From Lunularia cruciata (taxonomy: Eukaryota; Streptophyta; Marchantiopsida; Lunulariales; Lunulariaceae): 64,000 nucleotides of DNA. How positions within the stretch are numbered: the first letter of the stretch is position 1; every line of letters begins with the position of its first letter. The notes below the pieces were generated by a model that was not told where the DNA came from, did not search any database, and was given only the letters and a program-made list of their open reading frames with translations. This document shows positions 13,266-45,900 of this stretch, piece after piece. The position numbers and the translations under genes were made by a program. The DNA is taken from the NCBI GenBank assembly GCA_948567375.1, contig OX419761.1, forward strand, positions 34,572,243-34,636,242. Direction: 5' to 3'.

Positions 13266-13269
13266 AGGC

Positions 13270-13718
13270 TGTCACGCCATTTGTAGTTCCGCATCTAGAT
13301 GCTCGGACACTGGAGTTCCAGTGATGGTAGTTAGAGTTATTCTAGCTGTTTCTCAGGGACTACTTTCCGACGGTTAGATTTCATGTTCGGGGTACTGACT
13401 TCACGGTGGGGCCCACCGTCACTTTGCACCGTTTGCACCGTCGAGTGTGCTGTCAGCGGGACCGTTAGGGTTTCAGGGCTAGCTCGAGTCCAGGGGGTAT
13501 AGTTTCGAAGTGAGCTCCAGAGAGCTCACTTCTCTGATGTTGAGCCTTCGAGTTCCTGGCTATGGTGGACAGAGGCCGGCGAGCGTCACCTGGATTCTTT
13601 ATGCTTGAGTGGGTGTGGCTTGACTATAATCAGTGCCCAGTTGTTGGCAGTTTATAGAGTGACAGATCAAGTACTGATCTGAGTTGAGTTGAGTTGAGAA
13701 TGTTAAGCAATCTGATTA
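13270..13718 (+). repeat. Left terminal repeat, X part only
   Basis: Same length as the X parts at 22651, 23208 and 23765 (449 bp up to 'ctgatta') and nearly identical to them. It lacks the 107-bp Y part that follows X in the right-hand units. Internal sequence starts directly at 'catcagag'. Confidence 0.9.
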
Positions 13719-14525: not shown

Positions 14526-15028
14526 CCTCACTTGTTGTCATAGTGACTGTGCCACTGTTATCTATACACATGTAGCTTTGGCTAGGAGAGGCAGTTTGAT
14601 CCCATTCTTGGTGATCCTGGTAGCTTAGGACTTAGATACGAACTACTCTTATGTCAAATGCCAAATGGTGGCAGAGTCAGTCCCGTGTTGTGTTATGAGG
14701 TGGAGGGTTTTTGTTTAGATTTCTTGTGATTGGATCCCCTCCATTCTCTGCTTCCTGTTTGTGCACCACGTTTGTGTGAGGTGCCTTGACTTTTGAGCGT
14801 TGGTGCTCTGGTGTGCTCTCGGTGGTGAGGCTGGAGTGATGACCAGTCAGACTACCTTTGTTTCTCTCCGGTGAGGCAGGAAGTGATGACATGCAGACCG
14901 TGAGAGTGCGTGTTATGATGGCAGGTTACAGGTTGCCCTTCCCCTAGTGTAGTTATCTCGGTTAGAGTTACATTAGTGGGTGATGTCTAGTTGGTGTTGG
15001 CACTTGGTGGGGCACTTGCAGTTGCGAC

Positions 15029-17452
15029 TTGCGGTTGCAGTTGGTGGTTCGGGTTTACTGTTGCAGTTACGTGGTCACGACGGAGTTCTTTGGAGATTCC
15101 AGAGGAGTTAGCCCTGCAGTACGCAGTGGGTTTACTCGGAGTGGTGCTCGGTATCAGCCTGTATCTCAGGTCCCAGTGAGGGAGGAGATTGACTCTGAGT
15201 TGGAGTTCGACACAGGAGCTGATTCAGTTGAGAGTGCACTTGGTGTGTCCGCACCGTTGTTGTGGGACATGGATGAGATTTATGGGGCCTCCAAAGGCCC
15301 TAGGCGTTACTCTGGTACAGTGGGTACCATTGAGTTGGATGACTTCATCCAGGAGTTCGATAGTTGGTGTGATCTGCAGTAGATGCGGAACCCGACTTTG
15401 TTCACACCCTTCATGGCATGGAAGGGGTTGTTTCAGCACTTGGAGGGTCCACCGATGGACGACTACCATGAGTTCAGGAGAGCTCATTTGGAGGAGATTG
15501 AGTTATGGAGACAGTATTGGTCTCCACACTATGTCTCCATCACTTCAGGTTCGGTAGCCAGGAGTAGGTCGGCTGTACCTACGAGTTCTAGCTCGAGTAG
15601 TGTTGGTGGAGCTAGTGGAGGTGCACTAGCTGGAGATAGTGCTACTACGAGTGGAGGTACCGCTGCAGGAGGTGGTGTGGTACCGGGGTTTAACCCCATG
15701 GTTGAGTTCTTCCTATGTTTGAGGCAGAACTACCAGGGAGTGCGGACTGACAAGCTGAGGAGCTTGCAGGAGTTCCAGCGGAAGGCTGGAGAGAGCCTAC
15801 GCGAGGCATACACTCGCATGAGGTGGCTGATCAGTTTCACTCAGGGAGTTACTGAGGCCCAGGCAGTCCAGTTTTGGTATGGGATACTGGACAGGGAGTT
15901 GCGACGTAGAGTTCGTGATGCTACGTTGTTGCAGGCTACTTCACCCACTTTGGCAGTAGTCTTTGGTTTGGCTGAGCGTATTGAGCTCAACATGGTGGAG
16001 GAGAGAGAGGTGACATCTGGATTTGGTAGAGAGACCTCATCCACGGTTGTGACTTCTTCTAGAGTGCAGCAGAGTGCACCACGCCCAGTTGGTTTTCGAG
16101 GACAGGGTGGACAGCCCAGATCCTATGGAGCGAGTGGAGGGCCTAGTGGAGTTAGACCCTTACCCTCATTTTCGGGTCAACAGCAGCCAGTGAGTGGTGG
16201 TGTTGCTTGTTGGACTTGTGGTGGACCTTACCATAGGAGAGAGTGTACTCAGGGCAGCGGACCTGATACCTCTGGTGCATCACAGCCAGCACAGAGGCAG
16301 TGTGAGCACTGCCATAGATTTGGTCATACTAGTGACCGGTGTTTTGACCTACACCCGGAGTTACGGAGTGGTAGGGCTGCTATGGCAGGTAGTAGAGGAG
16401 CTCCAGTTCATGGAGGACGAGGTGGTAGAGGTGGTGGTAGAGGATCTACACCTAGTAGGGGTGCAGTACCTGCCCTTACTTCTAACACAACTATGGCTAC
16501 TCGGATTGAGCAGTTGGAGCAGAGATTGGCTAGTATGGCTATTGCTCATAGGAGATCAGATTCGGGTGCTGAGGCTTCCACCTCATATGCTAGTGATAGA
16601 GATGCTTTGGACTTCATGTGCGGAGCAGCACAGGTGGATGCATCTGCAGCAGTGACTAGGAGTGCAGTACGTGCTCCAGAGCCTAGAGGAGCATCAGTGG
16701 AGTTGGACCCACAGAGAGGAGAGGTTGGGAGACAGGTCAGACTTCCCCAATCTTTCACGCTATCTGAGGCATTGCAGATGACATCCATGGTTCCTAGACG
16801 TCCCAGTGCAGGTGTGGTAGGTGGTGATGGAGTACTTGATGGAGTACCTGCTAGTCAGCCACCTGCTACTACACAGACTGAGTCTAGCATGATGTTGGGG
16901 GCGGCTCAGCTGATTATGCGGCATCCTTTATTTTCAACCAGTGACATGTTTACATTGGGAGTGGACCCAGCCCCAGTGTTCCGGTTGGCTGCTACGTTGT
17001 GTGAGAGTAGGGATGGTGCAGTTCCTACTACTAAAGCAGAGGTGGTTGGTAGTGGAGCTGACTTGGTTGAGGAGCATGGGATCCGTTCAGCGACCAGTGG
17101 TTTATGGCAGGCAGCAGCGGCTAGACTGGAGGAGTTGCCAGCTAGACCGGCCTTTGAGAGAGCGCGGTTTACACCTGGTGTTGTCCTATTGGATAACCAG
17201 AGGGGGATCTTTCGTTTGGTGGGACCTTCAAGGAAGGTCTATACACCACAGAGAGTCTTGTTAGACTCTGGTGCGCAGCCCCTTATGTTGGGGAAGGCTG
17301 CAGTTGTTGGTCTGGAGTTACGGAAGACCGATGTGGAGAGGTGTCTATTTCAGATCCAGACATCTCTAGGTCTGGTTCGACACAGTACATCACACGTGGG
17401 GAGCTTGTTGTCCAGGTTCAGCCTGGTCATCCGACTGATAGCTCGATGGTGA
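15029..17452 (+). CDS. gag: Gag and N-terminal half of the aspartic protease
   Basis: One frame from an ATG at 15029 (an earlier start is possible) to 17452, interrupted only by TAG at 15380-15382. Sequence on both sides of that TAG reads as continuous Gag (DDFIQEFDSWCDLQ, stop, MRNPTLFTPFMAWKG). Capsid-like helices follow a Ser/Gly-rich linker (15560-15690) and include an FYGILDRELRRRV-like block. Two zinc knuckles bind nucleic acid: CX2CX4HX3C at 16208-16246 and CX2CX4HX4C at 16301-16342. Downstream come an Arg/Gly-rich stretch and, at 17264-17272, the protease triplet Asp-Ser-Gly (LLDSGAQPLMLG). The protease core then breaks: its second half continues in the -1 frame of the next entry. Role: virus-like particle shell, RNA packaging and polyprotein cleavage. 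Confidence 0.85.
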
Positions 17453-19260
17453 GAGCTCAGGCTATTGCGACGATAGCTGAGTCCTATGATGTGCTAGTTG
17501 GGGGAGCAGTGTTATACCCTATGGGTTTCAGTATTGACTATTGGGAGGAGACAGCCTCTTATAGACCTGGTTGGCAGTCTGGTGAGGGACGGGTATGTCG
17601 CCTACCAATACGCTTTAGTAGTGGCAGTCTTGGCTCACTACAGTTCGGGACCATGGCAGCATCAGTTTTGGCTTTCAGCGGTGCAGTTACTTGGCCTGGT
17701 GACTTGTTGGAGGGGAACGCCCATGCAGAGGATACTCCAGTACCAGAGGAGATCACTCGGCTATGGAGTACGAGTGGGATTGTTCCATCCACCTTGGATG
17801 TTCCATTGTGGAGTTCAGAGGAGGCATTGCAGCAGCATGCAGATCAGTTGGTGCAGCAGGCTTGGAGTGGAGCCTTCGTACCATCAGGGGATGAGTGTGA
17901 GGATGAGCCTCCAGAGGCGATTGCTTTGACACCTCTGGATACCACACTCATTGCTTGGCAGTATCCAGTAGAGGGGATATGTCTATTAGAGTTGTTTGGT
18001 GGGATCAGCACCGGACTAGCTGCGGTGTTACAGGCGGGTATCCGAGTACAGAGGTACTTGTATGTAGAGAGAGATGAGACTGCTAGGCGAGTCTCTCTAC
18101 ATCATGTGGCACACTTGGCCTATCGGTATCCGGAGTTATTACCGATGTCAGCAGTCAGAGGTTACCAGAAGGCCTTACCAGGAGACATTTCCTTATTGGG
18201 GGCGCATGACCTAGAGAGACATGGGCCCATTCACTTGGTGATTTCTGGATGGCCATGTCAGGGACATACACGTGCGGGCCGCGGTTTGGGTCTTCAGGAT
18301 CCTCGTTCTGGTGTGTTTTGGGAGATGTTACGGATACTACGACATCTCCAGGTTCATCAGTTTGTTTCTCCAGCTTACCTTTTGGAGAACGTTCCATTGA
18401 TGGGTGATTCTCGCACTAGAGTGGTGGCGAGTACACATCAGGTCCATTCTTGGATGGGACCTGCTGTATTGTTAGATGCAGCCAGAGTGGGATCACGGGC
18501 TCATCGTCTTCGTCTTTGGTGGACGAACCTTTTACCCAGAGAGGTTCTACAGCGTAGTTATGATGGGATTCAGCGACTAGACCACATTCTTGTTGATGAT
18601 ATCTTGGATGCTGGACGTCAGTCTCAGACAGTGGTAGTGGCTGATAGGTCACCCATGGCAGTGGTGAACCTAGTTGGACAGCCTAGAGCTGCATTTCCCA
18701 CACTCATGAGTTTCCCAGGCTCTCATGCTTTTCGAGAGGGAGGACCTGGACTTGTTTGGGACTCACAGTTACAGCAGTTGGTGGAGCCCAATGCTGATGA
18801 GAGAGAGCGGGCGATGGGTTTTCGCACCGGTATTACCGCTGTTCCAGCAGTGTCAAAGGCATCCAGGCGTCAGGTGTTAGGTCAGGCTATGGACCTGAAC
18901 TGTTTGACCTGGATTGTGAGCCTTGGTTTGGCAGAGCAGCGTAGGATGCGCTTGATAGGCATCACCACTCGGACACTTGTGAGCCCTGTGCCTATCGAGA
19001 CGATTCAGGCACATGCTGGGGGCGATGGACCGAGTGGACATGGTATTCTTGGGACACATCCAGTAGCTACTAGGGAGAGTGGTCTACTTGGAGTCCATCC
19101 AGGTGAGCGTGGGCTACTTGGATTACACCCTTGGTCCACATGGGATGCAGCCAGAGGACGTATGGAGCTTGCAGCCAGAGTGGAGGGAGTTTTTCACACA
19201 GAGGTTGGGACCTCTAGTGGTCGGGAGCATGACACCATTGCTCCCAAGGGCCCAGTGTAG
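17341..19260 (+). CDS. Protease C-terminal half fused to a C5 cytosine DNA methyltransferase
   Basis: The first about 110 codons finish the retropepsin fold (AESYDVLVGGAVLYPMG). From about residue 214 the frame carries C5-methyltransferase motifs in canonical order. Motif I is LLELFGGISTG (215-225). A GW-Pro-Cys-Gln loop with candidate catalytic Cys306 is followed by GHTRAGRGLGLQDPRSG. Motif VI is LENV with Glu349. Motif VIII is SRAHRLR with Arg389 and Arg391. A target-recognition-like stretch ends in ERERAMGF, then motif X (RQVLGQAMDLN). Such enzymes transfer methyl from S-adenosylmethionine to cytosine C5. The order is not permuted, unlike plant DRM enzymes, and the Pro-Cys-Gln form is closer to DNMT1/CMT or bacterial types than DNMT3. 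The frame ends at TAG 19258-19260, but coding sense continues in frame beyond it. No other stop is inside the domain. Confidence 0.88.
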   Translation: MSISDPDISRSGSTQYITRGELVVQVQPGHPTDSSMVRAQAIATIAESYDVLVGGAVLYPMGFSIDYWEETASYRPGWQSGEGRVCRLPIRFSSGSLGSLQFGTMAASVLAFSGAVTWPGDLLEGNAHAEDTPVPEEITRLWSTSGIVPSTLDVPLWSSEEALQQHADQLVQQAWSGAFVPSGDECEDEPPEAIALTPLDTTLIAWQYPVEGICLLELFGGISTGLAAVLQAGIRVQRYLYVERDETARRVSLHHVAHLAYRYPELLPMSAVRGYQKALPGDISLLGAHDLERHGPIHLVISGWPCQGHTRAGRGLGLQDPRSGVFWEMLRILRHLQVHQFVSPAYLLENVPLMGDSRTRVVASTHQVHSWMGPAVLLDAARVGSRAHRLRLWWTNLLPREVLQRSYDGIQRLDHILVDDILDAGRQSQTVVVADRSPMAVVNLVGQPRAAFPTLMSFPGSHAFREGGPGLVWDSQLQQLVEPNADERERAMGFRTGITAVPAVSKASRRQVLGQAMDLNCLTWIVSLGLAEQRRMRLIGITTRTLVSPVPIETIQAHAGGDGPSGHGILGTHPVATRESGLLGVHPGERGLLGLHPWSTWDAARGRMELAARVEGVFHTEVGTSSGREHDTIAPKGPV

Positions 19261-19266
19261 CAGCCA
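19258..19266 (+). promoter_or_regulatory. UAG-CAG-CCA: possible stop-codon read-through site
   Basis: The TAG is followed directly by CAGCCA, which fits the UAG-CARYYA read-through consensus known from tobacco mosaic virus and relatives. The same frame continues into RT. The alternative is a CAG-to-TAG mutation. Confidence 0.45.
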
Positions 19267-21024
19267 GTCAGTACGTCTTCCACTCCTACTACAGTTACAG
19301 AGGATACTTGGGAGCCAGATCTTGGACCCAAGCTTACTGGAGAGGAAAGACGGAGGGTTTGGAGGTTCTTGAGGAGTCACACGAGTTGTTTTGCCTTCAG
19401 TATGAAGGATTTGGGTGCTCTGAAGGGACCTGGTATACGGATTGAGCTGACTAGCGACACACCTGTTTTCCGACGTCCTTATCGATATAGTGAGATGGAG
19501 AGGACATTGATTCAGAGCCGGAGTAGTGACCTTTTTGAGGCTGGTTTGGTGGAGATTTCACATGGAGAGTATGCATCAACGACAGTGATGCCAGCCAAGA
19601 AGGATATGCATGGCAACTATACAGATAGGCGGATGTGTGGAGATTACCATCCTATCAACCGACAGACCAGGGCTGATCAGTATGCCATGCCTACACCGGA
19701 GGAGATTTTTGATGCGATTGGGCATGCAAAGGTCTTCAGTACTTTGGATCTTCGAGCGGGATATAATCAGTTGCCAATCAGGGAGGAGGATAAGTCCAAG
19801 ACAGCATTTTGGGCTATTGATCCTCACGGCAAGGATGTGTTATATCAGTGGAGGTTCTTACCATTTGGGTTGAAGAATGCTCCTGCTGAGTTCCAGAGGG
19901 TCATGGATAGGATCCTAGCTGGACTGGATTTTGCTCGGTGCTATATTGATGACATTTTGGTGTATAGCACTACTGTGGAGGAGCATGAGCGACAGTTGTT
20001 GGAGGTGTTTGAGAGGTTGAGATCTCATGGACTCAAATTACATCTTGGGAAGTGTAGGTTCTTCCATGAGCAGGTTGAGTATTTGGGTCACACTATCTAC
20101 CCCGGAGGACTTGGTGTTCAGCAGACCAAGGTGGAGGCTATTGCACGTATTCCTTGGCCTACGGATGTGAGCAGAGTGCGAGCATTCCTTGGGTTGGCGA
20201 ACTTCTATCGCCGCTATGTTAGAGGATTTAGTGCCATTGCCAAGGCCTTGACGAAGCTGACCAAGCTTACACAAGAGTGGTGTTGGGGAGATGAGCAGGA
20301 GAGAGCTTTTGTAGAGCTCAAGGAGAGGTTGACATCTGCTCCTATTTTGAGGAGACCGATCAGGGGACGACCATTTCAGGTTCACACTGATTGGAGTATG
20401 TTGGGGCTTGGAGCGGTGCTCACCCAACATGATGATGAGGAGAAGGAGTTTGTGGTGGCCTATGCTAGTCGCTCCAACAATTCAGCGGAGGCGAAGTATA
20501 GTTCATATGAGGGAGAGTGCTTGGCAGCAGTTTGGGCAGTAGCACATTTCCGATGTTACCTATTTGGTAACCCCTTCACTCTCATCACTGATCATCAGCC
20601 GCTGAAGTGGTTGATGGAGTCCGACAAGCTTTCAGGGAAGCTTGCACGATGGGCTCTGATTTTACAGGAGTATGATTTCACGGTTGTTCACAGACCTAGA
20701 GTGGTGAACCGTGATGCAGATGGGTTGAGTAGAAACCCATGTCCCAGCCAGCAGGATCAGACCGGAGCACGTTGGCATGGTGAGACAGATGAGGAGATGG
20801 TGCCAGGTTGGCATGCATCAGCCTTTCTGTGTATATTTGCAGAGACATTGGTGGTATCTCTCTCAGCGCATATAGGAGGAGTTATTGAGGTCACAGATCC
20901 AGAGAGTGAAGATATTGGTACAGTTCAGCGAGACATTCATGATGATGTCTTAGTGATGGACTATCTTCGCACTGGTGTTGTGGGTGGCACAGTTGGGGCC
21001 AAGGAGAGAGACCGTGTTCTTTAG
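19261..21024 (+). CDS. pol: Ty3/gypsy reverse transcriptase and RNase H
   Basis: In frame with the methyltransferase across the TAG at 19258; the first internal Met is at 19369, but the domain clearly starts before it (FLRSHTSCFAFSMKDL). RT motifs present: YRYSEMER, KKDMHGNYTDRRMCGDY, FSTLDLRAGYNQ, FLPFGLKNAPAEFQRVMD and the catalytic YIDD at 19942-19953, then FLGLANFYRRYV. RNase H follows with HTDWS, YEGECLAAVWA, LITDHQPL and HRPRVVNRDADGLSR, so the catalytic Asp/Glu residues are present. The frame ends in TAG at 21022-21024 with coding sense continuing directly into integrase. The product copies element RNA into DNA inside the particle. No frameshift is seen within this segment. Confidence 0.92.
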   Translation, partial: QPVSTSSTPTTVTEDTWEPDLGPKLTGEERRRVWRFLRSHTSCFAFSMKDLGALKGPGIRIELTSDTPVFRRPYRYSEMERTLIQSRSSDLFEAGLVEISHGEYASTTVMPAKKDMHGNYTDRRMCGDYHPINRQTRADQYAMPTPEEIFDAIGHAKVFSTLDLRAGYNQLPIREEDKSKTAFWAIDPHGKDVLYQWRFLPFGLKNAPAEFQRVMDRILAGLDFARCYIDDILVYSTTVEEHERQLLEVFERLRSHGLKLHLGKCRFFHEQVEYLGHTIYPGGLGVQQTKVEAIARIPWPTDVSRVRAFLGLANFYRRYVRGFSAIAKALTKLTKLTQEWCWGDEQERAFVELKERLTSAPILRRPIRGRPFQVHTDWSMLGLGAVLTQHDDEEKEFVVAYASRSNNSAEAKYSSYEGECLAAVWAVAHFRCYLFGNPFTLITDHQPLKWLMESDKLSGKLARWALILQEYDFTVVHRPRVVNRDADGLSRNPCPSQQDQTGARWHGETDEEMVPGWHASAFLCIFAETLVVSLSAHIGGVIEVTDPESEDIGTVQRDIHDDVLVMDYLRTGVVGGTVGAKERDRVL

Positions 21025-22374
21025 CGAGCCAGACGGTTCAGATTGGAGGGTAGACACCTTTTGCGTGTATGGGAGGATGGTAGAGTGCGAGTAGTACCAC
21101 TTCCATCACAAAGACCACAGTTGGTCCGTCATGCTCATGAGGAGCTAGGACATTTTGGAGTAAAGCGTACATATAGCTTACTCCAGAGTCATTATTGGTG
21201 GCGCGGTATGCAGACCGAGGTACAGCAGTTTGTTGCCAGATGTGTGGTTTGTGACCGAGTTAGAGCATCATTCAATGCTCCTACGCCACAGTTACACCCA
21301 TTACCTATCATGGGATTGGGTTACCGTTGGAGTTTGGACTTCGCCGGACCTTTACCGCTGACTGTGAGACATCATCGGTATGTTTTGGTGATGGTGGAGC
21401 ACTTCTCCAAGTGGATTGAGTTGGTGGCACTTCCTGACAAGTCTAGTGAAGGGACAGCTTACTCGTTCCTGGATCGAGTTCTTAGTCATTTTGGTGCACC
21501 AGCTGAGGTTTTGACTGATCAGGGTACAGAGTTCTTGGGAGAGTTTCAGGTCTTGTGTGACAAGGCTTTGATTGATCATCGTACTACATCCCGAGATCAC
21601 CCTGAGGCAGATGGCTTAGCAGAGAGAGTGGTTCAGACGGTGAAGAGAGGATTGCAAAAGTATGGTTTGCAGAGAGGCCACTTGGGAGATTGGGATCTCC
21701 AGTTACCTTGGTTGGCCATGGGCTATCGGTTCAGCCGGCAAGCCTCCTTAGCATCCTTCTCTCCATACTTTCTACTCTATGGACGAGATCCAGATTTACC
21801 TGCAGCCATTCGTCGAGATGCTACTGTAGTTTTGGACTTGGATGACCCTGATGTATGGATGAGCGCATGTTCTCAGCGGGCAGAGATCTTTCAGAGAGTG
21901 ATGCCGATGGCCTTCGAGAACTTGGCGATTGCTCAGCATAGAGATACTTTACGCTATGCTACCATTCGAGGAGGAGGTTATAGACCCTCGATCCGTCGAT
22001 TTCATCCAGGCGACTATGTATATCTACAGCAGACAGCACCGACGACACTTGATGTTTCTACAGGCCGCACTATCTTGAGAGTGCGCGAGGTTTTGCCATC
22101 TGGAGTCCTTGTGTTAGAAGGACGTGATGGTGTTGTTTGGAAGGATCATGTGCGCAATTGTGCGCCATGCCACCTTCCAAACATTGATGGTACTATGGAC
22201 CCAAGCTTGGCACTTGTACGTGCAGGCTTGAGGTGTATGTTATGTGGCTCTTCTGGTGGAGCTGCTACTATGTTAGTGTGTGATAGCTGTTCGAGAGGAT
22301 GGCATATGGCATGTATGACTCCTCCCCTCACGGTGGTTCCTCAGGGACAGTGGTTATGTCCTAGATGTACTTGA
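21025..22374 (+). CDS. int: Integrase with C-terminal PHD finger
   Basis: Same frame as RT/RNase H. An HHCC zinc domain (His at 21130 and 21151, Cys at 21241 and 21250) precedes a DDE core: Asp at 21337 (SLDFAGPL), Asp at 21517 (VLTDQGTEF), Glu at 21622 (HPEADGLAERV), the last two about 35 residues apart. The C-terminal region (FHPGDYVYLQQ) is the usual Ty3-type GPF/SH3-like part. Instead of a chromodomain, the protein ends with a C4HC3 PHD finger at 22234-22371: CMLC, then MLVCDSC, GWHMAC and WLCPRC. PHD fingers typically bind the histone H3 tail, so it may direct insertion to particular chromatin; that role is inference. Catalytic and zinc residues look intact. Confidence 0.9.
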   Translation, partial: RARRFRLEGRHLLRVWEDGRVRVVPLPSQRPQLVRHAHEELGHFGVKRTYSLLQSHYWWRGMQTEVQQFVARCVVCDRVRASFNAPTPQLHPLPIMGLGYRWSLDFAGPLPLTVRHHRYVLVMVEHFSKWIELVALPDKSSEGTAYSFLDRVLSHFGAPAEVLTDQGTEFLGEFQVLCDKALIDHRTTSRDHPEADGLAERVVQTVKRGLQKYGLQRGHLGDWDLQLPWLAMGYRFSRQASLASFSPYFLLYGRDPDLPAAIRRDATVVLDLDDPDVWMSACSQRAEIFQRVMPMAFENLAIAQHRDTLRYATIRGGGYRPSIRRFHPGDYVYLQQTAPTTLDVSTGRTILRVREVLPSGVLVLEGRDGVVWKDHVRNCAPCHLPNIDGTMDPSLALVRAGLRCMLCGSSGGAATMLVCDSCSRGWHMACMTPPLTVVPQGQWLCPRCT

Positions 22375-22530
22375 CCTATAGCTAGTTCATTCTTTATATG
22401 GTATAGATTGCAGACAGGCGACTAACGATGGGGCTCCATAGCACCCGGCCTCCTGATCTTTGCCCATTAGAGGGTATACCATATACTTAGAGTAGATGGC
22501 TATCTGGAGTTAGAGGGACCTAACCGCCAG

Positions 22531-22543
22531 CTAGGGGGGCGAT
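22531..22543 (+). promoter_or_regulatory. Candidate polypurine tract
   Basis: 'ctaggggggcgat' lies directly before the first Y repeat, where plus-strand DNA synthesis would be primed if Y starts the terminal repeat. It contains six consecutive G but is interrupted by C. Confidence 0.4.
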
Positions 22544-22648
22544 TGTGGCACTTTAGAGTCTATGTATGACTTATGTGTGAGTTGTGCTTTTATAGTGTAT
22601 GATGTTGACAGCGATGTATGTTGTGTAGCGATGTATATACGCACGACA
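22544..22648 (+). repeat. Isolated Y part preceding the right terminal array
   Basis: Near-identical to the Y parts that end each of the three following units. It contains a TATA-like 'cttttatagtg'. Its right end GACA is followed by AC and then the TGTC start of the first full unit. Confidence 0.85.
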
Positions 22649-22650
22649 AC

Positions 22651-24319
22651 TGTCACGCCATTTGTAGTTCCGCATCTAGATGCTCGGACACTGGAGTTCC
22701 AGTGATGGTAGTTAGAGTTATTCTAGCTGTTTCTCAGGGACTACTTTCCGACGGTTAGATTTCATGTTCGGGGTACTGACTTCCCGGTGGGGCCCACCGT
22801 CACTTTGCACCGTTTGCACCGTCGAGTGTGCCGTCAGCGGGACCGTTAGGGTTTCAGGGCTAGCTCGAGTCCAGGGGGTATAGTTTCGAAGTGAGCTCCA
22901 GAGAGCTCACTTCTCTGATGTTGAGCCTTCGAGTTCCTGGCTATGGTGGACAGAGGCCGGCGAGCGTCACCTGGATTCTCTATGCTTGAGTGGGTGTGGC
23001 TTGACTGTAATCAGTGCCCAGTTGTTGGCAGTTTATAGAGTGACAGATCAAGTACTGATCTGAGTTGAGTTGAGTTGAGAATGTTAAGCAATCTGATTAT
23101 TGTGGCACTTTAGAGTCTATGTATGACTTATGTGTGAGTTGTGCTTTTATAGTGTATGATGTTGACAGCGATGTATGTTGTGTAGCGATGTATATACGCA
23201 CGACAACTGTCACGCCATTTGTAGTTCCGCATCTAGATGCTCGGACACTAGAGTTCCAGTGATGGTAGTTAGAGTTATTCTAGTTGTTTCTCAGGGACTA
23301 CTTTCCGACGGTTAGATTTCATGTTCGGGGTACTGACTTCACGGTGGGGCCCACCGTCACTTTGCACCGTTTGCACCGTCGAGTGTGCCGTCAGCGGGAC
23401 CGTTAGGGTTTCAGGGCTAGCTCGAGTCCAGGGGGTATAGTTTCGAAGTGAGCTCCAGAGAGCTCACTTCTCTGATGTTGAGCCTTCGAGTTCCTGGCTA
23501 TGGTGGACAGAGGCCGGCGAGCGTCACCTGGATTCTCTATGCTTGAGTGGGTGTGGCTTGACTGTAATCAGTGCCCAGTTGTTGGCAGTTTATAGAGTGA
23601 CAGATCAAGTACTGATCTGAGTTGAGTTGAGTTGAGAATGTTAAGCAATCTGATTATTGTGGCACTTTAGAGTCTATGTATGACTTATGTGTGAGTTGTG
23701 CTTTTATAGTGTATGATGTTGACAGCGATGTATGTTGTGTAGCGATGTATATACGCACGACAACTGTCACGCCATTTGTAGTTCCGCATCTAGATGCTCG
23801 GACACTAGAGTTCCAGTGATGGTAGTTAGAGTTATTCTAGCTGTTTCTCAGGGACTACTTTCCGACGGTTAGATTTCATGTTCGGGGTACTGACTTCCCG
23901 GTGGGGCCCACCGTCACTTTGCACCGTTTGCACCGTCGAGTGTGCCGTCAGCGGGACCGTTAGGGTTTCAGGGCTAGCTCGAGTCCAGGGGGTATAGTTT
24001 CGAAGTGAGCTCCAGAGAGCTCACTTCTCTGATGTTGAGCCTTCGAGTTCCTGGCTATGGTGGACAGAGGCCGGCGAGCGTCACCTGGATTCTCTATGCT
24101 TGAGTGGGTGTGGCTTGACTGTAATCAGTGCCCAGTTGTTGGCAGTTTATAGAGTGACAGATCAAGTACTGATCTGAGTTGAGTTGAGTTGAGAATGTTA
24201 AGCAATCTGATTATTGTGGCACTTTAGAGTCTATGTATGACTTATGTGTGAGTTGTGCTTTTATAGTGTATGATGTTGACAGCGATGTATGTTGTGTAGC
24301 GATGTATATACGCACGACA
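22651..24319 (+). repeat. Three tandem 555-bp terminal-repeat units (X+Y)
   Basis: Units at 22651-23205, 23208-23762 and 23765-24319, each starting TGTC and ending GACA, separated by AC, with an exact period of 557 bp. They differ by only a few substitutions (for example 'cactggag/cactagag', 'ttcccgg/ttcacgg'). The junction GACA-AC-TGTC is a small palindrome like a joined LTR-LTR end. Confidence 0.92.
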
Positions 24320-24323
24320 AGGC

Positions 24324-24689: not shown

Positions 24690-25060
24690 TAGTTTGTATC
24701 CATGTTTGATAGGAATAAGAGTTCATGTGGGTTTGATATGAATAAGAGTTCATGTAGGTGGTTAGTAGAGTGAGGTCAAAGCAAGGTTGAGAAAAAAAAG
24801 AGGTCATAGGAATAAATGTGTGTTAGTGGGTCGATATGAGTTGCCCTGGAATAGAGGTCAAGGAAAGAATAAAGGTCAAGAGGTCAAGGTCATGTGGGTT
24901 TGATAGGAATAAGAGTTTGTGTAAGTGGTTAGAAGAGGGAGGTTGCGGAAAAAACAGAGTTCATAGGAATAAATGTGTGTTAGTGGGTCAATAGGAGTCA
25001 CCTTGGAGTAGAGGTCAAGGAGAGAACAGAGGTCAAGGAGTAGACATTGAGGAAAGATTA
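24690..25060. repeat. Two tandem copies of a roughly 190-bp unit
   Basis: 'gtttgataggaataagagtt' and 'aaatgtgtgttagtgggtc' each recur about 190 bp apart, separated by variable AAAGGTCAAGG-type short repeats that continue to about 25150. There is no coding sense. Confidence 0.6.
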
Positions 25061-29975: not shown

Positions 29976-31050
29976 TCAAGAGGAAAAGGAAGAGAGGTTA
30001 GGAACAAAGGGTTTCAACTTGGAAACATGAAAGATAGGATGGATATGCATGTGACAAGGTAAGGCAAGTCGATAAGCAACAGGAGAGACAAATTGGGTGA
30101 TATCAAAGGGTCCTATCCAGTTAGGGGCAAGTTTACGAACTTGGGTATCAAGTAGGAGAGGGAGGTTACTGGAGGATAGCATGACTTTATCACCAACTTC
30201 AAAGGTGAGATCACGACGATGATGGTCCGCATATTGTTTTTGGCAATTCTGAGCAACAAGGAGGTGAGACTTGGCTTGTTGGAGCGATTGGGATATAGTG
30301 GTCAAGAATGTGGAAGTATGAGGAACCTGAGAGGGAGGGGGAGCAAGAAGAGAATCTAGAACAAGTGGATCTTGGCCAAAATTGAGAAAGAAGGGAGAAA
30401 ATCCGGTGCTTGCCTGTTTGGAATTGTTGTAGGAAAATTCTGCAATTGCAAGACATTCATCCCAATTGGTATGGTGGACATTGACAAAGGCCCGCAACAT
30501 ATCCTCTAATGTACGATTTGCACATTTGGTTTGTCCATCAATTTGAGGATGATAGGCCGTGTACAAAGCAAGCTTGGTGTTGAGTATCTGGAAGAGTGCT
30601 TGCCAAAACTTCCCAGTAAATCGAGGATCACAGTCAGAGATGAGTACACGGGGCATCCCATGATGCTTGAAAACATTGTTGAAGTAGATTTGCGCTAAGG
30701 TTGGAGCATCCACGGTATCATAGGTTGGTGCCAAGTGGATTTTCTTACTGAGCTTATCCACAAACACCACGATTGTGGTGTGTCCTTGTTTTTTCTTTGG
30801 CAAGGATGTGATTAGATCCAAGCTCACATGCTCCTAGCGAGCGGATGGAATGGCGAGTGGTTGAAGGAGTCCACTCAGCTTCTGGTTACTGGCCTTGTTA
30901 CATTGGCAGCTCTCACACGATCTGAAAAATTCTCAAACATCTCGTGTCATGTTGGGCCACCACCATTGACGTTGGAGGGTACCCAAGGTCTTGTCTACAT
31001 TGATGTGACCAGCGATGGGTAAATCATGGGCTTCTTGAAGGTGCACAAGT
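29976..31050 (-). pseudogene. int: Chromovirus integrase, inactivated
   Basis: The zinc-binding HHCC region (30830-31040, with WWWPNM and CESC) contains a TGA and is cut from the core frame (30827-29976). The core has VVFVDKLSKKIH and ISDCDPRFTG, but the expected QTE motif reads DGQTKCANRTLEDM, so the third catalytic acid (Glu) is Lys. The C-terminal GPFDI and YRLALP blocks are intact. It would not catalyse strand transfer. Confidence 0.85.
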
Positions 31051-31991
31051 CAAAGATCACCTTTGGCTAGAACATAGATCTGATCCGCATGGAATAGAAG
31101 GCCTTCCTTGAAGGAGAAGGTGTTGTTCTCCTTATCACCTGTTGTTAGACAACCATGTACCATTTGGAAGAAGGGATCTTGTTGTAGAGCTAACCAAAAC
31201 TTGTTATGGATCTTGGGGTCAATTGACACCGTCGTAATTGCTGCTGCAATGAGAGGAAGGGACTTCAAATCAGGTCGTTGTGATAGAGCATCAGGGATGA
31301 CATGGAACCGACCGGGTTTGTACTCAAGTTTGATGTCGAACAATTGAAGTTGCTCTTCCCATCGATGAAGTCGACTCTTCATGTGCTCCAGGTGTAAGGT
31401 CTGCAACAATGGCTTGTGATCAGTTTGCATGATCACTTGTTTCCCCAAGAGATAATGCCTCCATACCTTGGTGGCATATACCATTGCAAGTTGTTCCCAA
31501 TCTCGAGTAGAGAGATGTCTTTCAGCTGTATTTAGTTGGCAAGACACAAAGGCAATGGGATGTAGTCCATCTGGAAATTCTTGTTGCAACACAGCTCCAA
31601 TTGCAAAGTTAGAAGCATCAAAATCAACCACACAAGGTAGTTGAGGATCATATGGTTGAAGAATGGGTCTTGAAGACACCATATGTTTCAACTTTTGGAA
31701 TGCTTCTTCATGTTTGGTGTTCCACTGGAAGCTCAAGTTCCTTCCCAAGAGGTCAGTCAATGGTGCATCCACATGAGCATAATAGTGGATGAACCGCCGG
31801 TAAAAATTGGCCAATCCATTGAATGCCCGTACTTTTGTAGCATCCTTTGGGGTAGGCCAATCAATAATGGCCTTGATCTTCTCTTCCTCCATCTTGATCC
31901 CCTCTGATGAGATCTTATGACCCAAGAAGGTAACCTTTGCCAAAAAGCACACTTTGACTTCTTGCAATAAAATTTCCATTATCGTAGTCAT
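31050..31991 (-). pseudogene. pol: Chromovirus RT connection and RNase H
   Basis: A single open frame: VTFLGHKIS, FNGLANFYRRFIHYYA, VVDFDASNFAIGAVL, HLSTRDWEQLAMV, MQTDHKPLLQ and FHVIPDALSQRPD. These are RNase H and tether signatures. It is separated by a frame change at about 31990 from the RT fingers and palm. Confidence 0.85.
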
Positions 31992-32755
31992 CTTAGGACT
32001 TCTCGCACATGATTCACGTGTTCTGCCTCTATCTTGCTAAAGATTAAGATATCATCCAAGAACACCACCACTGACCGATCCAATAGTCCATCCAACACCT
32101 GATGCATCTGATCTATGAAGACTACTGGAGCATTAGTGAGTCCAAAAGGTAGAACTCTCCACTCAAAATGTCCATACCTTGTGCGAAAGGCAGTCTTTTG
32201 CACGTCCTCTCCTTCAATAGGAATTTGCCAATAGCCGCTACAAAGATCTAGCTTGGAAAAGTAGCATGCTCCACTTAATTGATCAAGCAGGTCATTGATC
32301 CGAGGCAAGGGATATGCATTCTTCACGGTTTGCTTATTGAGCCCACGGTAATCAATACAGAAACAAAGTCCTCCATCCTTCTTTGGAACAAATAGTACCA
32401 GTGCTCCCCACGGAGAGGTACTATGTCATATGAAATCCTTCTCCAATAACTCTATAAGTGTTTTTCGCAACTCCTCCAACTCCTTTGGTGAGAGCCGATA
32501 GATTGGTCTACTCACTGGAGTACTCTCTGGCAATAACTTGATCTTGAAGGGCATACCTCGATCAGAGGGTAATCCCTTTGGCAGATCATCCAGAAACACA
32601 TCTACAAACTCTTGAACTATCCGATCAACCGTTACTTGATGCGGCACATGGCCCTCCTTAGATTGTTCTTGTGCCACCGGCTTGATCCACACCACGAATA
32701 CAAACTTATCTTCCTCCAAAGCTTGCTCTATGGCTGCTTCATTAACAAACTTCAC
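31988..32755 (-). pseudogene. pol: Chromovirus reverse transcriptase, broken
   Basis: Frames 32755-32426 and 32326-31988 carry RT blocks: [13 protein letters not shown], then after a TGA in LLEKDFI-stop-HSTSPWG, [42 protein letters not shown] and the catalytic [11 protein letters not shown]. At the TGA position the related element at 44.8 kb has a sense CAA codon, showing that the stop is a lesion. Confidence 0.85.
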
Positions 32756-32929
32756 TTCTAGGGACTCATCTCTCTTCCAAGCTTGCTCTATGGTTGCCTT
32801 CTTGGCAAACTTCCCATCTTGGGACTCATCTCCCTTCCAGATTTGCTCTATGGCTACCTTCTCAACAAACTTCCAATCTTGGGATTGACTATTCTTAGGT
32901 GTCTTACTCAGAGGTGCCAGACAACCTAA

Positions 32930-33322
32930 TCAGAAATTTCTACCTTGGTGTTGTACTTGAATTTGACGTCGGGTCCAATCGAATTGAACCTTATGACGTT
33001 CAAGCCAAGGTAGACCCAAAATGATATCATAGTGTAGAGGTGCCACTACAAACCTCATACACTCTAAATACTCCTCCCCAATCTTGAAGGTAATAGGATG
33101 CGAGGTGCGGAATGCAGAACCTTTTCTACCATCCGCCATCATCAAACTACTTCCAATCACTGGCTTGATAGGAATACCCAATTCCGTTGCTACTTGCATA
33201 GATATGCAATTCTCTGAACTTCCAAAATCAACCAAAATCTTACAATCCCGATTAGATATCGTACCTTGCAAGTGAAGCAAACTTGCATAGGTCAAGCCTT
33301 CAATCCCATTGGAACTAATCAA
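32930..33322 (-). pseudogene. Chromovirus aspartic protease
   Basis: The retropepsin region reads ILVDFGSSENCIS then IILGLPWLERH. The catalytic Asp is kept, but the following residue, normally Ser or Thr in D-S/T-G, is Phe, which probably abolishes activity. Confidence 0.75.
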
Positions 33323-33329
33323 GCTCCCA

Positions 33330-34505
33330 GTAGGCGGCTCAAAATCTCCTATTGGGATTCTTCATTTCCCTGATCATTCTATTCCACAAACTCCATCTGG
33401 GCAACTTGTCGAGGTCTCCCATTCCTAAGTGGACATTCAGCAACACGATGTCCAACTTGGTGACAATAAAAGCAACCTCCATTTTGTCGTAATCTTTCTC
33501 TATCTTCTATGCCTAGTGTTCTTCGTTAGATAGCATCAATCTCCATTGGTACCGGTTCTTCCACTTGTGATATTGGTAGGTTTTGTGTAGGTCGAGGTCA
33601 AGACCAAGTTGTCGCAACTAAGGAATCAAAATGCTCAGCCAATTGCATGGCTTCTTCTATGTTCTGTGGCTCTCGCATGGTCGCCTCCAATCTGGTTCGT
33701 GACTTCAATCCTTGCATAAATCGATCCAAAACTTCATCTTCTTGGATATCTGGAATTTGCATGATGATATTCTAAAATTGTGTGATGTAGCTTCTCACCA
33801 AGCCAATCTGCCTCAACTCTACCAATTTATCTCGTGTAGCTCGGGTGGCATTTATAGTCTGAACTTGACCAAGTATTGCATCCTTGAATTCTGCCCATGT
33901 CAAAATCAATATAACAATTTGTCGTTTAGCTCTTTCTACTCAGAATCGCCACCAAAGTTTTGCCACGCCATCCAATTGGCTAGAAGCCAAGAGAATTTGT
34001 TTCTGCTCGTCTTGAAGATTGGTGGCTTCAAAGTAACATTCACAGTCAAACACAAAATTCTCCACTGTGTCTGGAAGAATCTTGCCTTCAAACACCTTGG
34101 GTTTGAGAAATTGAATGCGATCTTCTCCATCTCAAACTGGCGCTCTATTTATCTATTCTCGTCGTTGCTGGTCTTGTTCATCCAACAATCGAGTAAGATG
34201 CTCGATTTGTTGTTGCATTGCAAGGATAACATCCGGTATTGCCGCCATTGCTACTACTCTATTCCCCTACCCTCAATTTATCTAGTTGATTAACACATAG
34301 ATACAACACGTCCACCGTTCTCCATAAGTTACAATTGGAAGTATCAAGGGTTCCTCCGACACGGTGATCATATGTAGAAAATCCTGCCCAAAGCGTGAGG
34401 TGATGAATTGTGTGAAATGATGCTTTGGTAATATCTGGACATGAAAGTCCCAATGGTTTGGCGGAAGTGGATTTGGTGGTCCATAAATTCTATCCATCCC
34501 ATTCC
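33330..34505 (-). pseudogene. gag: Chromovirus Gag, heavily interrupted
   Basis: A zinc knuckle (CFYCHQVGHRVAEC, CX2CX4HX4C) is visible near 33430-33480. Upstream capsid-like fragments are separated by stops and frameshifts up to the primer site. Matching fragments occur at 45120-45770 in the deleted relative. Confidence 0.7.
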
Positions 34506-42905: not shown

Positions 42906-45900
42906 TATAAAAGACCGAGACCAAGGAGAGAAATAGGAGAATGGAAACTCACATTGGGACACTTGAATGTGGGAAAACTCCAAATGCCTAGCATGAGCTT
43001 TGGCTTTGGTATTTATAGGTACCATACAAGGCCCTTGAGAAGCTTCTCAAGAAGCTTCCTTCTAGAAGCTGCCTACTTGGCATGCAAGCTAAGCTAGTTG
43101 GAAGCTTCTAGAAGCTACTTAATTGAGGTGCAAGCTAAGCTTCCCAAGAAGCTTCTAAGATACTTCCAGAATATCTTAGGCTAATTTGTCTTATGTGTTA
43201 CTTTGTAAGCCCGACTAACTTTGTTGCTAAACTCCATATTGTTACATATTCTCTCGCTGCTAGTTGGTGACGTCCTTGTTGCTAGTGAAGCTTTGAATTC
43301 ATGGATGGTTGTCTGTGCATTCTAGAGGTGAGAAAGAGATTCCCATGTGGCATCATGAAGGGGATACCCTTTCCAAAGGACCTTGTACTCCGTATGTTGG
43401 CGACGGCTTCATCTGGAAGAGTGCTTGCCAAAAATTCCCAGTAAATCAAGGATCACGGTCGGAGATGAGTACATGTGGTATCCCATGATGCTTGAAGACA
43501 TTGTCAAAGTAGATTTGCGCTAAGGTGAGAGCATCCATGGTATCACAGGTTGGTGCCAAGTGGATTTTCTTACTAAGCTTATCCACAAACACCACAATTG
43601 CGGTGTGTCCTTGTTTTGTCTTTGGCAAAACAAGATGTCTGTGATGAGATCCAAGCTCACATGCTCCTAGTGAGTGGTTGAAGGAGTCCACTCGGCTTTT
43701 GGTTGCTGGCCTTGTTACATTGGCAAACTCTTAAACATCTCATGTCATGTTGGGCCACCACCATTGACGTTTGAGGGTACTCAAGGTCTTGTTTCCCCAA
43801 GAGGTAATGCCTCCATACCTTGGTGGCGTATACCATTGTAAGTTGTTCTTGATCTCAAGCAGAGTATTTTTGTTCAACCGTATTGAGTTGGCGAGACACA
43901 AAGGCAATGGGATGGAGTCCATTTGGGAATTCTTGTTGCAACACGGCTCCAATTGCAAAGTTAGAAGCATCAAAATCAACCACACAGGGTAGTTGAGGAT
44001 CACATGGTTGAAGAATGGGTCTTGAAAACACTATATGCTTTAACTTTTGGAATGCTTCTTCATGCTTGGTGGTTCACTAGAAGCTCAAGTTCTTTCCCAA
44101 GAGGTCAGTCAATGGTGCATCCACATGAGCATAATAATGGATGAACCATCGGTAAAAACTAGCCAATCCATTGAATGCCCATACTTTTGTAGCATCCTTC
44201 AGGGTAGGCCAATCAGTAATGGCCTTGATTTTCTCTTCTTCCATCTTGATCCCCTTTGATGAGATCTTATGACCCAAGAATGAATCCTTCTGCCAAAAGG
44301 CACACTTTGACTTCTTGCAGTAAAATTTCCATTGTCGTAGTCATCTTAGGACTTCTCGCACATGATTCACATGTTCTATCTCTATCTTACTATAAATTAA
44401 GATATCATCCAAGAACACCACCACAAACTGATCCAATAGTCCATCCAACACCCAATGCATCTGATCCATGAAGACTATTGGAGCATTAGTGAGTCCAAAA
44501 GGTAGAACTCTCCACTCAAAATGCCCATACCTTGTACGAAAGGTAGTCTTTTGCACATCCTCTCTATCAATAGGAATTTATTAATAGCCATTGCAAAGAT
44601 CCAACTTGGAAAAGTAGCGTGCTCCACTTAGTTGATCAAGCAAGTCATCAATCCGAGGCAAGGGATATGCATTCTTCACGGTTTGCTTATTGAGCCCACA
44701 ATAATCGATACAAAAACAAAGTCTTCCATCATTCTTTAGAACAAATAGTATCGGTGCTCCCCAAGGAGAGGTACTATGTTGTATGAAGTCCTTCTCCAAC
44801 AACTCTGTAAGTGTTGTTTGCAACTCCTCCAACTCCTTTGGTGAAAGCCGATAGATCGATCTACTCATTGGAGTTCTCCCTGGCAATAACTTGATCTTGA
44901 AGGGCATACCTCAATTGGAGGGTAATCCCTTCGGCAGATCATCCGGAAACACGTTTGCAAACTCTTGAACTATCCTATCAACCATTGCTTGATGAGGCTC
45001 TTGGCCCTCCTCCGATTGTTCTTGTGCAATCGGCTTAATCCACACCGCAAATACAGACTTATCTTCCTCCAAAGCTTGCTCTATGGCTGCTTTACTAACC
45101 AACTGCCAATTTATCTCGTGCGGCTTGAGTGGCATTTATAGTTTGAAATTGACCCAAGTATTGCATCCTTGAATTTTGTCCATGTCAAGATTGGTGCAAC
45201 AATCTATCGTTCAGCTTGCTCCACTTGGAATTGCCACCAAAGTTTTGCCACACCATCAATTGGTTTGAAGCCAAGAGAATCTGTTTTTGTTCATCTTGAA
45301 GATTGGTGGCTTTGAAGTAACATTCACAATTAAACACAAAATTCTCCACTGTGCCCGGAAGATTCTTGCCTTCAAACACATTGGGTTTTGGAAATCAAAT
45401 ATGATCTTCTCCATCTCAGACTGGCGCTCTCTCTATATGTTCTCGTTGTTGTTGGTCTCATTCATCCAACAATCGAGTAAGGTGCTCAATTTGTTGCTAC
45501 ATCACAAGGATAACGTCTGGTATTGCTGCCATAGCTACTACTCCCAATTTATCTAATTGATCAACACATAGATACAACACATCCACCTTTCTCGATAAGT
45601 GACAACCGGAAGTATCAAGGGTTCCTCAGACATGGTGATCATATGTAGAAAATCTTGCCCAAAGCGTGAATTGATGTGTGAAGTTGTGCTTGGGTAATAT
45701 CTGGACATGAAAATCCCAATGGTTTGGTGGAAGTGGATTTGATGGATAATAAATTCCATCCATCCCATTCCTGCTCTGATACCAATGTAAAGACCGAGAT
45801 TGAGGAGAGAAATAGGAGAATGGAAACTCACATTGGGACACTTGAATGTGGGAAAACTCCAAATGCCTAGCATGAGCTTTGGCTTTGGTATTTATAGGTA

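What the first reader, a model, noticed from the sequence alone, without database searches (positions are those of the whole stretch)
17983..18930. A retrotransposon that encodes its own cytosine-5 DNA methyltransferase
Between protease and RT, in the pol frame, lies a domain with motifs I, IV (Pro-Cys-Gln), VI (Glu-Asn-Val), VIII (Arg-x-Arg) and X in canonical order and with its catalytic residues. Eukaryotic Ty3/gypsy elements normally go directly from protease to RT. From memory, methyltransferase capture by retrotransposons was reported for dinoflagellates and the charophyte Klebsormidium. A copy in DNA that looks like a land plant, with this fusion position, may be a new lineage or a new capture. 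It might methylate element DNA to shield it, to mimic host marks, or to silence competitors.
Basis: partly seen in the sequence, partly recalled or inferred. Interest (0 to 1): 0.95.

Follow-up and report, generated by a model that had tools for sequence, protein, structure and literature searches.

The report
Bryophyte retrotransposon carrying a DNA methyltransferase
A jumping gene that is very common in what looks like a liverwort genome carries its own intact-looking DNA-methylating enzyme, a known oddity of a green-alga relative that is found here in liverworts and mosses too, with the enzyme placed before a conserved stop signal that probably has to be read through.

The parts
13266..13269 (.). 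4-bp target site duplication AGGC, left
   Evidence: matches 24320-24323
13270..13718 (+). A1: 5' repeat (449 bp, starts TGTCACG), lacks the B part
14984..17449 (+). Gag frame, interrupted in this copy by TAG 15380-15382; first half of protease (DSGAQP) near its 3' end
17197..19257 (+). open frame with the end of protease, the DNMT domain and its C-terminal tail
17971..18969 (+). DNMT3-type C5-cytosine methyltransferase domain (motif I 17992, PCQ 18253, ENV 18385, AHRLR 18499)
19258..19266 (+). conserved stop TAG followed by CAGCCA (fits the UAG-CARYYA readthrough motif)
   Evidence: motif definition from PMC5382211 passages
19261..21021 (+). reverse transcriptase and RNase H, same frame as DNMT, after the stop
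21022..21024 (+). TAG seen in this copy only (0 of 19 other alignable copies)
21025..22371 (+). integrase (H2C2 and rve core) with C-terminal PHD finger at 22234-22368
22530..22543 (+). G-rich polypurine-tract-like stretch just before B1
   Evidence: sequence; a similar stretch in L048 near 6940; by eye
22544..22648 (+). B1 (105 bp, with TATA-like motif near its 3' end)
22651..24214 (+). A2-B-A-B-A: this copy has three A repeats on its 3' side, period 557 bp
24215..24319 (+). terminal B repeat, ends CGACA
24320..24323 (.). 4-bp target site duplication AGGC, right

Best explanation
This is a high-copy, recently active Ty3/gypsy-type retroelement of a bryophyte, probably a liverwort, with DIRS-like split repeats and a captured DNMT3 catalytic domain that has been kept under selection. 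It makes two products from one frame: abundant Gag-protease-DNMT ending at UAG, and a minority product in which ribosomes read through UAG-CAR-YYA to add RT-RNase H-integrase-PHD. The protease should free the DNMT inside the particle, where it most likely methylates the new element DNA de novo before or at integration, so that the copy carries host-like 5mC. Shown here: the domain, its predicted fold and catalytic residues, its spread, the conserved stop and its context, split repeats, 4-bp duplications, and excess C-to-T change at CG and CHG. Inferred: readthrough, cleavage, packaging, enzymatic activity and the benefit to the element.
For: Domain and fold. Copies: 121 scored, 71 with no stop in the domain. 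In 47 distinct copies PCQ is intact in 46 (one PC*), ENV in 46 (one ENI), AHRLR in 43. N/S over expectation falls from 0.73 in singletons to 0.38 in variants shared by 2-3 copies, 0.33 by 4 or more and 0.18 by 8 or more; Fisher p 0.028 for 4 or more and 0.005 for 2 or more, each against singletons. In the Marchantia proteins P0006 and P0019, DNMT is 70 and 66% identical to the window's, RT 70 and 77%, gag pieces 39 and 43%. Stop: 21 of 21 copies, 637 of 649 sites. The relative L048 has the same order and TAG-CAA-TCA. Protein similarity begins soon after the stop, upstream of the first ATG, which is codon 48 here and 117 in L048. CARYYA follows 1 of 207 other TAGs read in that frame. Some retrotransposon DNMT3 domains methylated CG de novo in yeast (PMC5890265 section 10).
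Against: No activity, transcript or protein data. In the same yeast assay the KnitGypsy-Dnmt3 domain gave no methylation; the authors call that inconclusive because human DNMT3B failed too. 50 of 121 copies have stops in the domain, and 6 of the 12 stop variants among 47 copies are shared by 2-3 copies, so a working DNMT may not be needed in cis by every copy. RNA folding after the stop shows nothing special here (z 0.65) but is strong in L048 (z -3.96). P0174 and P0176 run from DNMT into RT without a stop, and three type B proteins run from RT to PHD in one, so readthrough is not essential to all such elements. The readthrough context is known in DNA from two lineages only. Copies were chosen by protein similarity, which biases N/S. 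C-to-T change is as high at CHG as at CG, so no CG-specific self-methylation mark is visible.
Confidence: 0.62

Rival explanations
1. The DNMT is a folded but non-essential passenger: it binds nucleic acid (RNA, or cDNA as a chaperone) and its methylation activity is unimportant or lost.
For: 50 of the 121 scored copies carry stops in the domain and persist; KnitGypsy-Dnmt3 showed no activity in yeast; some algal or metagenomic type B members have GWEC or GWDC instead of GWPC, and P0016 lacks the Cys.
Against: Cys, ENV and the VIII arginines are invariant or nearly so across the family; shared variants are depleted of non-synonymous changes.
Confidence: 0.15
2. The enzyme acts on the host or on competitors: it methylates chromosomal DNA around new insertions, guided by the integrase PHD finger, rather than the element's own cDNA.
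For: A PHD finger with E 7.7e-11 sits behind the integrase and resembles PHD fingers of CHD4, PHF21A, UHRF1 and others (that these read histone tails is recalled).
Against: DNMT and PHD lie on opposite sides of the conserved stop, so most DNMT would be made without PHD; the host already has genes that look like DRM and CMT.
Confidence: 0.12
3. The conserved TAG is not read through: it was fixed in a defective master, and RT-IN is supplied in trans or from another mRNA.
For: Many copies are damaged; no RNA data exist; P0174 and P0176 lack the stop.
Against: Predicted proteins of Calypogeia, Sphagnum and three unnamed sources end 88-90 aa past a common point after the DNMT, and 15 ORFs P0159-P0173 end 69-166 aa after the DNMT match, although a protein's end may be a contig end; L048 has a different but also CARYYA-fitting context; no ATG lies before conserved sequence of ORF2.
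Confidence: 0.1
4. The bryophyte elements captured a DNMT independently of the Klebsormidium element.
For: No protein named as Klebsormidium was among those listed (120 of 153 shown) or 62.
Confidence: 0.2

Closest known systems
KnitGypsy-Dnmt3 of Klebsormidium nitens (de Mendoza et al. 2018, PMC5890265)
   Same: Dnmt3-type domain in a Gypsy Pol ORF; repeats described as like those of a DIRS element; catalytic residues kept; purifying selection (sections 9-11 and passages).
   Different: Host here is a land plant with many copies; the main text has 0 hits for Marchantia, Sphagnum, liverwort, moss and PHD and its one 'stop codon' concerns damaged copies. Target duplications were not looked for in it. 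Its figures and supplements were not seen and its sequences were not compared.
SymbioDIRS-Dnmt3 of Symbiodinium
   Same: DNMT3 domain in a retrotransposon Pol ORF of the DIRS class; shown to methylate CG in yeast.
   Different: Tyrosine recombinase there, rve integrase with 4-bp duplications here.
Retroelements with an in-frame stop (MuLV gag-pol, SIRE1, Tca2)
   Same: gag/pol or pol/env frames divided by an in-frame stop that must be passed (PMC2194720 passage).
   Different: Here protease and a methyltransferase lie before the stop and RT-IN after it.
Animal DNMT3A/B catalytic domain
   Same: Best structural and profile match, canonical motif order.
   Different: 20-27% identity, PCQ instead of PCN, longer stretch modelled (338 against about 270-290 residues); no PWWP or ADD domain among the Pfam matches of the five frames.

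Membership tests
DNMT3-type C5-cytosine methyltransferase | motifs I, IV, VI, VIII, X in canonical order with catalytic Cys, Glu and Arg | tested here: met
DNMT3-type C5-cytosine methyltransferase | closer to DNMT3 than to DRM, DNMT1/CMT, DNMT2 or bacterial enzymes | tested here: inconclusive
   For: profile DNMT3A 1.1e-23, DRM-type 4onj 5.3e-9, M.HhaI about 1e-6, DNMT2 2e-4; the 50 Foldseek rows listed are all DNMT3. Missing: no tree with host DNMT genes was made, and no DNMT1/CMT chain was named in either list.
DRM (plant rearranged methyltransferase) | rearranged motif order | tested here: not met
   canonical order here; host exons L087 and L090, taken as DRM by their motifs, show the other order
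Ty3/gypsy LTR retrotransposon | RT-RNase H-integrase order with rve integrase | tested here: met
Ty3/gypsy LTR retrotransposon | complete identical LTRs at both ends | tested here: not met
   the window copy and 16 of 16 other copies with a 5' end begin at repeat position 107-108, with no B part upstream; the remaining 4 of 20 had no 5' end in the stretch
Ty3/gypsy LTR retrotransposon | TG..CA ends and 4-6 bp target duplication | tested here: met
   11 of 13 copies with both flanks examined have an exact 4-bp duplication; L012 has 3 of 4 bases, L011 does not match
DIRS order | split direct repeats A1-internal-B1-A2-B2 | tested here: met
DIRS order | tyrosine recombinase | tested here: not met
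   no such Pfam match in the five frames scanned; an rve integrase instead
KnitGypsy-Dnmt3 lineage | same clade as the K. nitens sequences | not tested
   no protein named K. nitens was listed
Type I (UAG-CARYYA) readthrough site | UAG followed by CARYYA | tested here: met
   TAG CAGCCA in 20 of 21 copies, L019 has CAGCCT; TAG CAATCA in L048; motif from PMC5382211 passages
Type I (UAG-CARYYA) readthrough site | measured readthrough | not testable with these tools
   needs a translation assay

The most novel reading that the evidence does not exclude
The methyltransferase is a particle component made at Gag level: a conserved leaky UAG separates Gag-PR-DNMT from RT-IN across land-plant elements, so each particle is loaded with de novo DNMT that methylates cDNA before an integrase inserts a split-repeat element. 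The same DNMT family also sits between RNase H and integrase in a second green clade, so one captured enzyme has occupied two places in pol.
Probability: 0.4. Interest if true: 0.85.

Novelty: new variant of a known kind. Interest (0 to 1): 0.72.

Why it matters
Cytosine methylation is how plants silence such elements, so a very successful element that may make its own de novo methyltransferase in bulk is a paradox that can be tested. A review states that transposons encoding DNA methylases are absent from land plants 'such as tracheophytes' (PMC6338049 passage), and a Marchantia methylome paper counts five host methyltransferases and has no 'DNMT3' in its main text (PMC5784723 passages). Bryophyte methylome work may therefore have an unrecognised source of DNMT3. 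The placement before a readthrough-type stop gives a concrete, cheap experiment on why elements keep this enzyme.

Tried and rejected
Rejected: that TAG 19258 is ordinary decay like the other stops; it is in 21 of 21 copies, whereas the stops at 15380 and 21022 are in 2 of 19 and 1 of 20 alignable copies, window included; genome-wide 637 of 649 sites (of the 12 others, 2 are visible in the cut list and read TAA). Rejected: a close bacterial or phage source; the viral-contig scan gave 19 weak relatives (best 45% over 71 residues, others down to 24%), and of 23 genome-contig loci only L048 is close (44% over most of the query); the others reach 22-25% over long or up to 44% over short stretches. 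L048 is taken as a eukaryotic contaminant of a cyanobacterial bin because of its genes. Rejected: ordinary LTR element whose 5' LTR is truncated in this copy alone.

Led nowhere: no primer-binding site identified by eye; RNA structure after the stop not shared; Pfam on ten other open frames of the window found only another Gypsy element. Host species not determined; 'liverwort' is inferred from the nearest named relatives. Tails after the DNMT vary: besides the five at 88-90 aa, others end 13-192 aa past the same point, Marchantia P0007, P0008 and P0012 at 86-88, and some gene models or type B proteins run on into RT, RNase H or IN (P0006, P0014, P0056; also P0019, P0065 and Sphagnum P0111); whether those models splice over the stop was not checked. 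RT tree (19 rows): B is one group, but the outgroup from the window falls among the A rows on a long branch, so the root is unsure; integrase tree (21 rows): A is one group, one B row (P0040) falls outside. Type B includes rows in which only integrase after the DNMT is seen. The DNMT tree used 61 rows: window, L048 and those of the 184 proteins with a match of about 290 aa or more and a neighbouring domain. No DRM chain is among the VIA rows shown; bacterial-type enzymes there rank below nearly all DNMT3 rows.

Full report

Copies. In the 566-Mb host genome 121 domain matches were scored out of 13573 first-look candidates; all 121 are full length and 97-100% identical, 71 without a stop inside; the tool calls such counts lower bounds. 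Exact matches to the 25 fixed bases around the stop number 649. In 15 of 21 elements both A1 and A2 could be compared; their distance has a median of 0.0136 and is 0.009 for the window copy. The family is therefore young and abundant. A search with the Calypogeia protein P0057 also found two heavily decayed copies of a second, older subfamily, 45-51% identical to it, on C11 and C1, and further fragments at C11:23864044-23865645. Changes among 47 DNMT copies are mostly C-to-T, at rates 0.027 in CG, 0.031 in CHG and 0.011 in CHH, with transversions near 0.002. That is the expected footprint of host methylation at CG and CHG, and it can explain the many private TAG stops.

Selection. Site by site, the ratio of non-synonymous to synonymous variants over expectation is 0.73 for variants in one copy, 0.38 in 2-3 copies, 0.33 in 4 or more and 0.18 in 8 or more; Fisher p is 0.028 for 4 or more and 0.005 for 2 or more, each against singletons. 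Variants that seem to have been transmitted by transposition are thus depleted of protein changes. The 47 copies were chosen by protein similarity to the window copy, which should lower N in singletons most, so the trend is if anything understated. This is moderate evidence, not a formal dN/dS; without C-to-T changes the shared classes are too small to tell.

The stop after the DNMT. In 21 of 21 copies (the window and 20 drawn from the 120 other scored places) the frame that holds the DNMT has the same TAG (window 19258), and RT-RNase H-IN-PHD follows in the same frame. A TGA at codon 1037 of that second frame is among the first three stops in 8 of the 21 copies. Genome-wide, 637 of 649 sites with exact flanks have TAG. 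By contrast the window's stops at 15380 and 21022 are found in 2 of 19 and 1 of 20 alignable copies, itself included. The six bases after the TAG are CAGCCA in 20 of 21 copies. A relative from a metagenome bin, L048, with 62% identical RT-RNase H, has the same order and TAG-CAATCA. Both fit UAG-CARYYA, the type I readthrough motif of tobamo-, beny- and pomoviruses (PMC5382211 passages). CARYYA follows 1 of 207 other TAGs read in this frame of the copies (indels put some of these out of the true frame), and CAR-YYA codon pairs make up 0.15-0.38% of pairs in these genes. Similar protein sequence starts within about 20 codons of the stop, before the first ATG (codon 48 here, 117 in L048), so a separate start is unlikely. 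Five homologous predicted proteins (Calypogeia P0001, Sphagnum P0053, unnamed P0004, P0005, P0010) end 88-90 residues after a common point; others end elsewhere or, as gene models, run on. Fifteen metagenomic Gag-PR-DNMT ORFs end 69-166 residues after the DNMT match. These are protein ends; their DNA was not seen. Against: P0174 and P0176 run from DNMT into RT without a stop. The likely meaning is that DNMT is made with Gag and protease in bulk, while RT and integrase are made at a few per cent.

Repeats and integration. A 557-bp unit has parts B (105 bp) and A (about 450 bp). The window copy and all 16 other copies whose 5' end was found start at A; the 3' side has B-A-B in each of the 16 other 3' ends read, and three A repeats in the window copy. 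This is the split direct repeat A1-internal-B1-A2-B2 of DIRS-type elements (layout as worded in a PMC8547959 passage). Yet the ends are TG..CA and 11 of 13 copies with both flanks examined have exact 4-bp duplications, as an rve integrase, which the element encodes, would make. The legend of figure 4 in PMC5890265 says of the Klebsormidium element that its repeats are like those of a DIRS element while its domains are of Gypsy type. The B-A junction CACGACA-NC-TGTCACG is also present in L048, whose contig ends overlap by 127 bases. One way to get this layout is that integrase opens a circular or multimeric cDNA at the B-A junction; that is inference.

Relatives. The domain is found in Marchantia, Riccia, Calypogeia, several Sphagnum species, a Closterium (partial) and many unnamed or metagenomic records. 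Two layouts exist: A, between protease and RT (37 rows), and B, between RNase H and integrase (24 rows; ten or more B proteins have a PHD finger after the integrase, and the RT tree adds a Monoraphidium protein). The DNMT tree separates them on one branch with 100/100 support. RT and integrase trees show the same split with the reservations given under Tried and rejected. The simplest account is one DNMT lineage carried by one element lineage, with the domain moved once within pol; the root, and so the direction, is not known.

Literature. PMC5890265 (sections 9, 10, 11 read; other parts by passage) describes the charophyte and dinoflagellate cases; its main text has no Marchantia, Sphagnum, liverwort, moss or PHD. 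PMC12344493 (passages) says that some DNMT3s sit in retrotransposons, as reported in streptophytes and dinoflagellates. Searches listed no title or abstract that describes a bryophyte element of this kind; the listed papers were mostly not opened, and subscription papers, preprints and supplements were not searched. PMC6338049 (passage) says that DNA-methylase transposons are absent from land plants such as tracheophytes.

How it most likely works. Host methylation silences old copies. A new transcript yields Gag-PR-DNMT and, by readthrough, RT-IN-PHD. The protease frees DNMT in the particle. DNMT methylates the cDNA, as de Mendoza et al. proposed for DIRS elements, and integrase inserts it, possibly guided by the PHD finger towards histone tails. 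Why the element gains from methylated cDNA is open: avoiding recognition as foreign DNA, protection from editing or degradation, or slower and less harmful spread are the published suggestions. The bulk production predicted by the stop favours a role on the cDNA or in the particle over a role of a few nuclear molecules.

Noticed in passing
window 29979-33361 (-): Remains of a second Ty3/gypsy element: RNase H, integrase and Tf2-1-like SH3 matches in separate frames, RT similarity at 31937-32578; no DNMT similarity there.
   Followed up: partly
window 43792-44886 (-): Fragment of another Ty3/gypsy RT, 33% identical to the element's RT.
   Followed up: no
window 22544-24319: Three tandem 557-bp repeat units at the 3' side, where the 16 other 3' ends read show one; possibly from a multimeric or circular cDNA.
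   Followed up: partly
L048 1-9285: A 9.3-kb contig in a cyanobacterial genome bin looks like an element of this family with ends overlapping by 127 bases, so the bin is probably contaminated.
   Followed up: yes
G000 C11:48964782-48966194 and C1:64965349-64966818: Two old, stop-riddled copies of a second DNMT-element subfamily shared with Calypogeia fissa.
   Followed up: no
type B proteins such as P0034, P0041, P0045: Algal or metagenomic members have Glu or Asp in place of the Pro of the catalytic PC motif while keeping the Cys.
   Followed up: no
window 24791-25037: Two diverged 90-bp direct repeats (88%) 157 bp apart, just downstream of the element.
   Followed up: no
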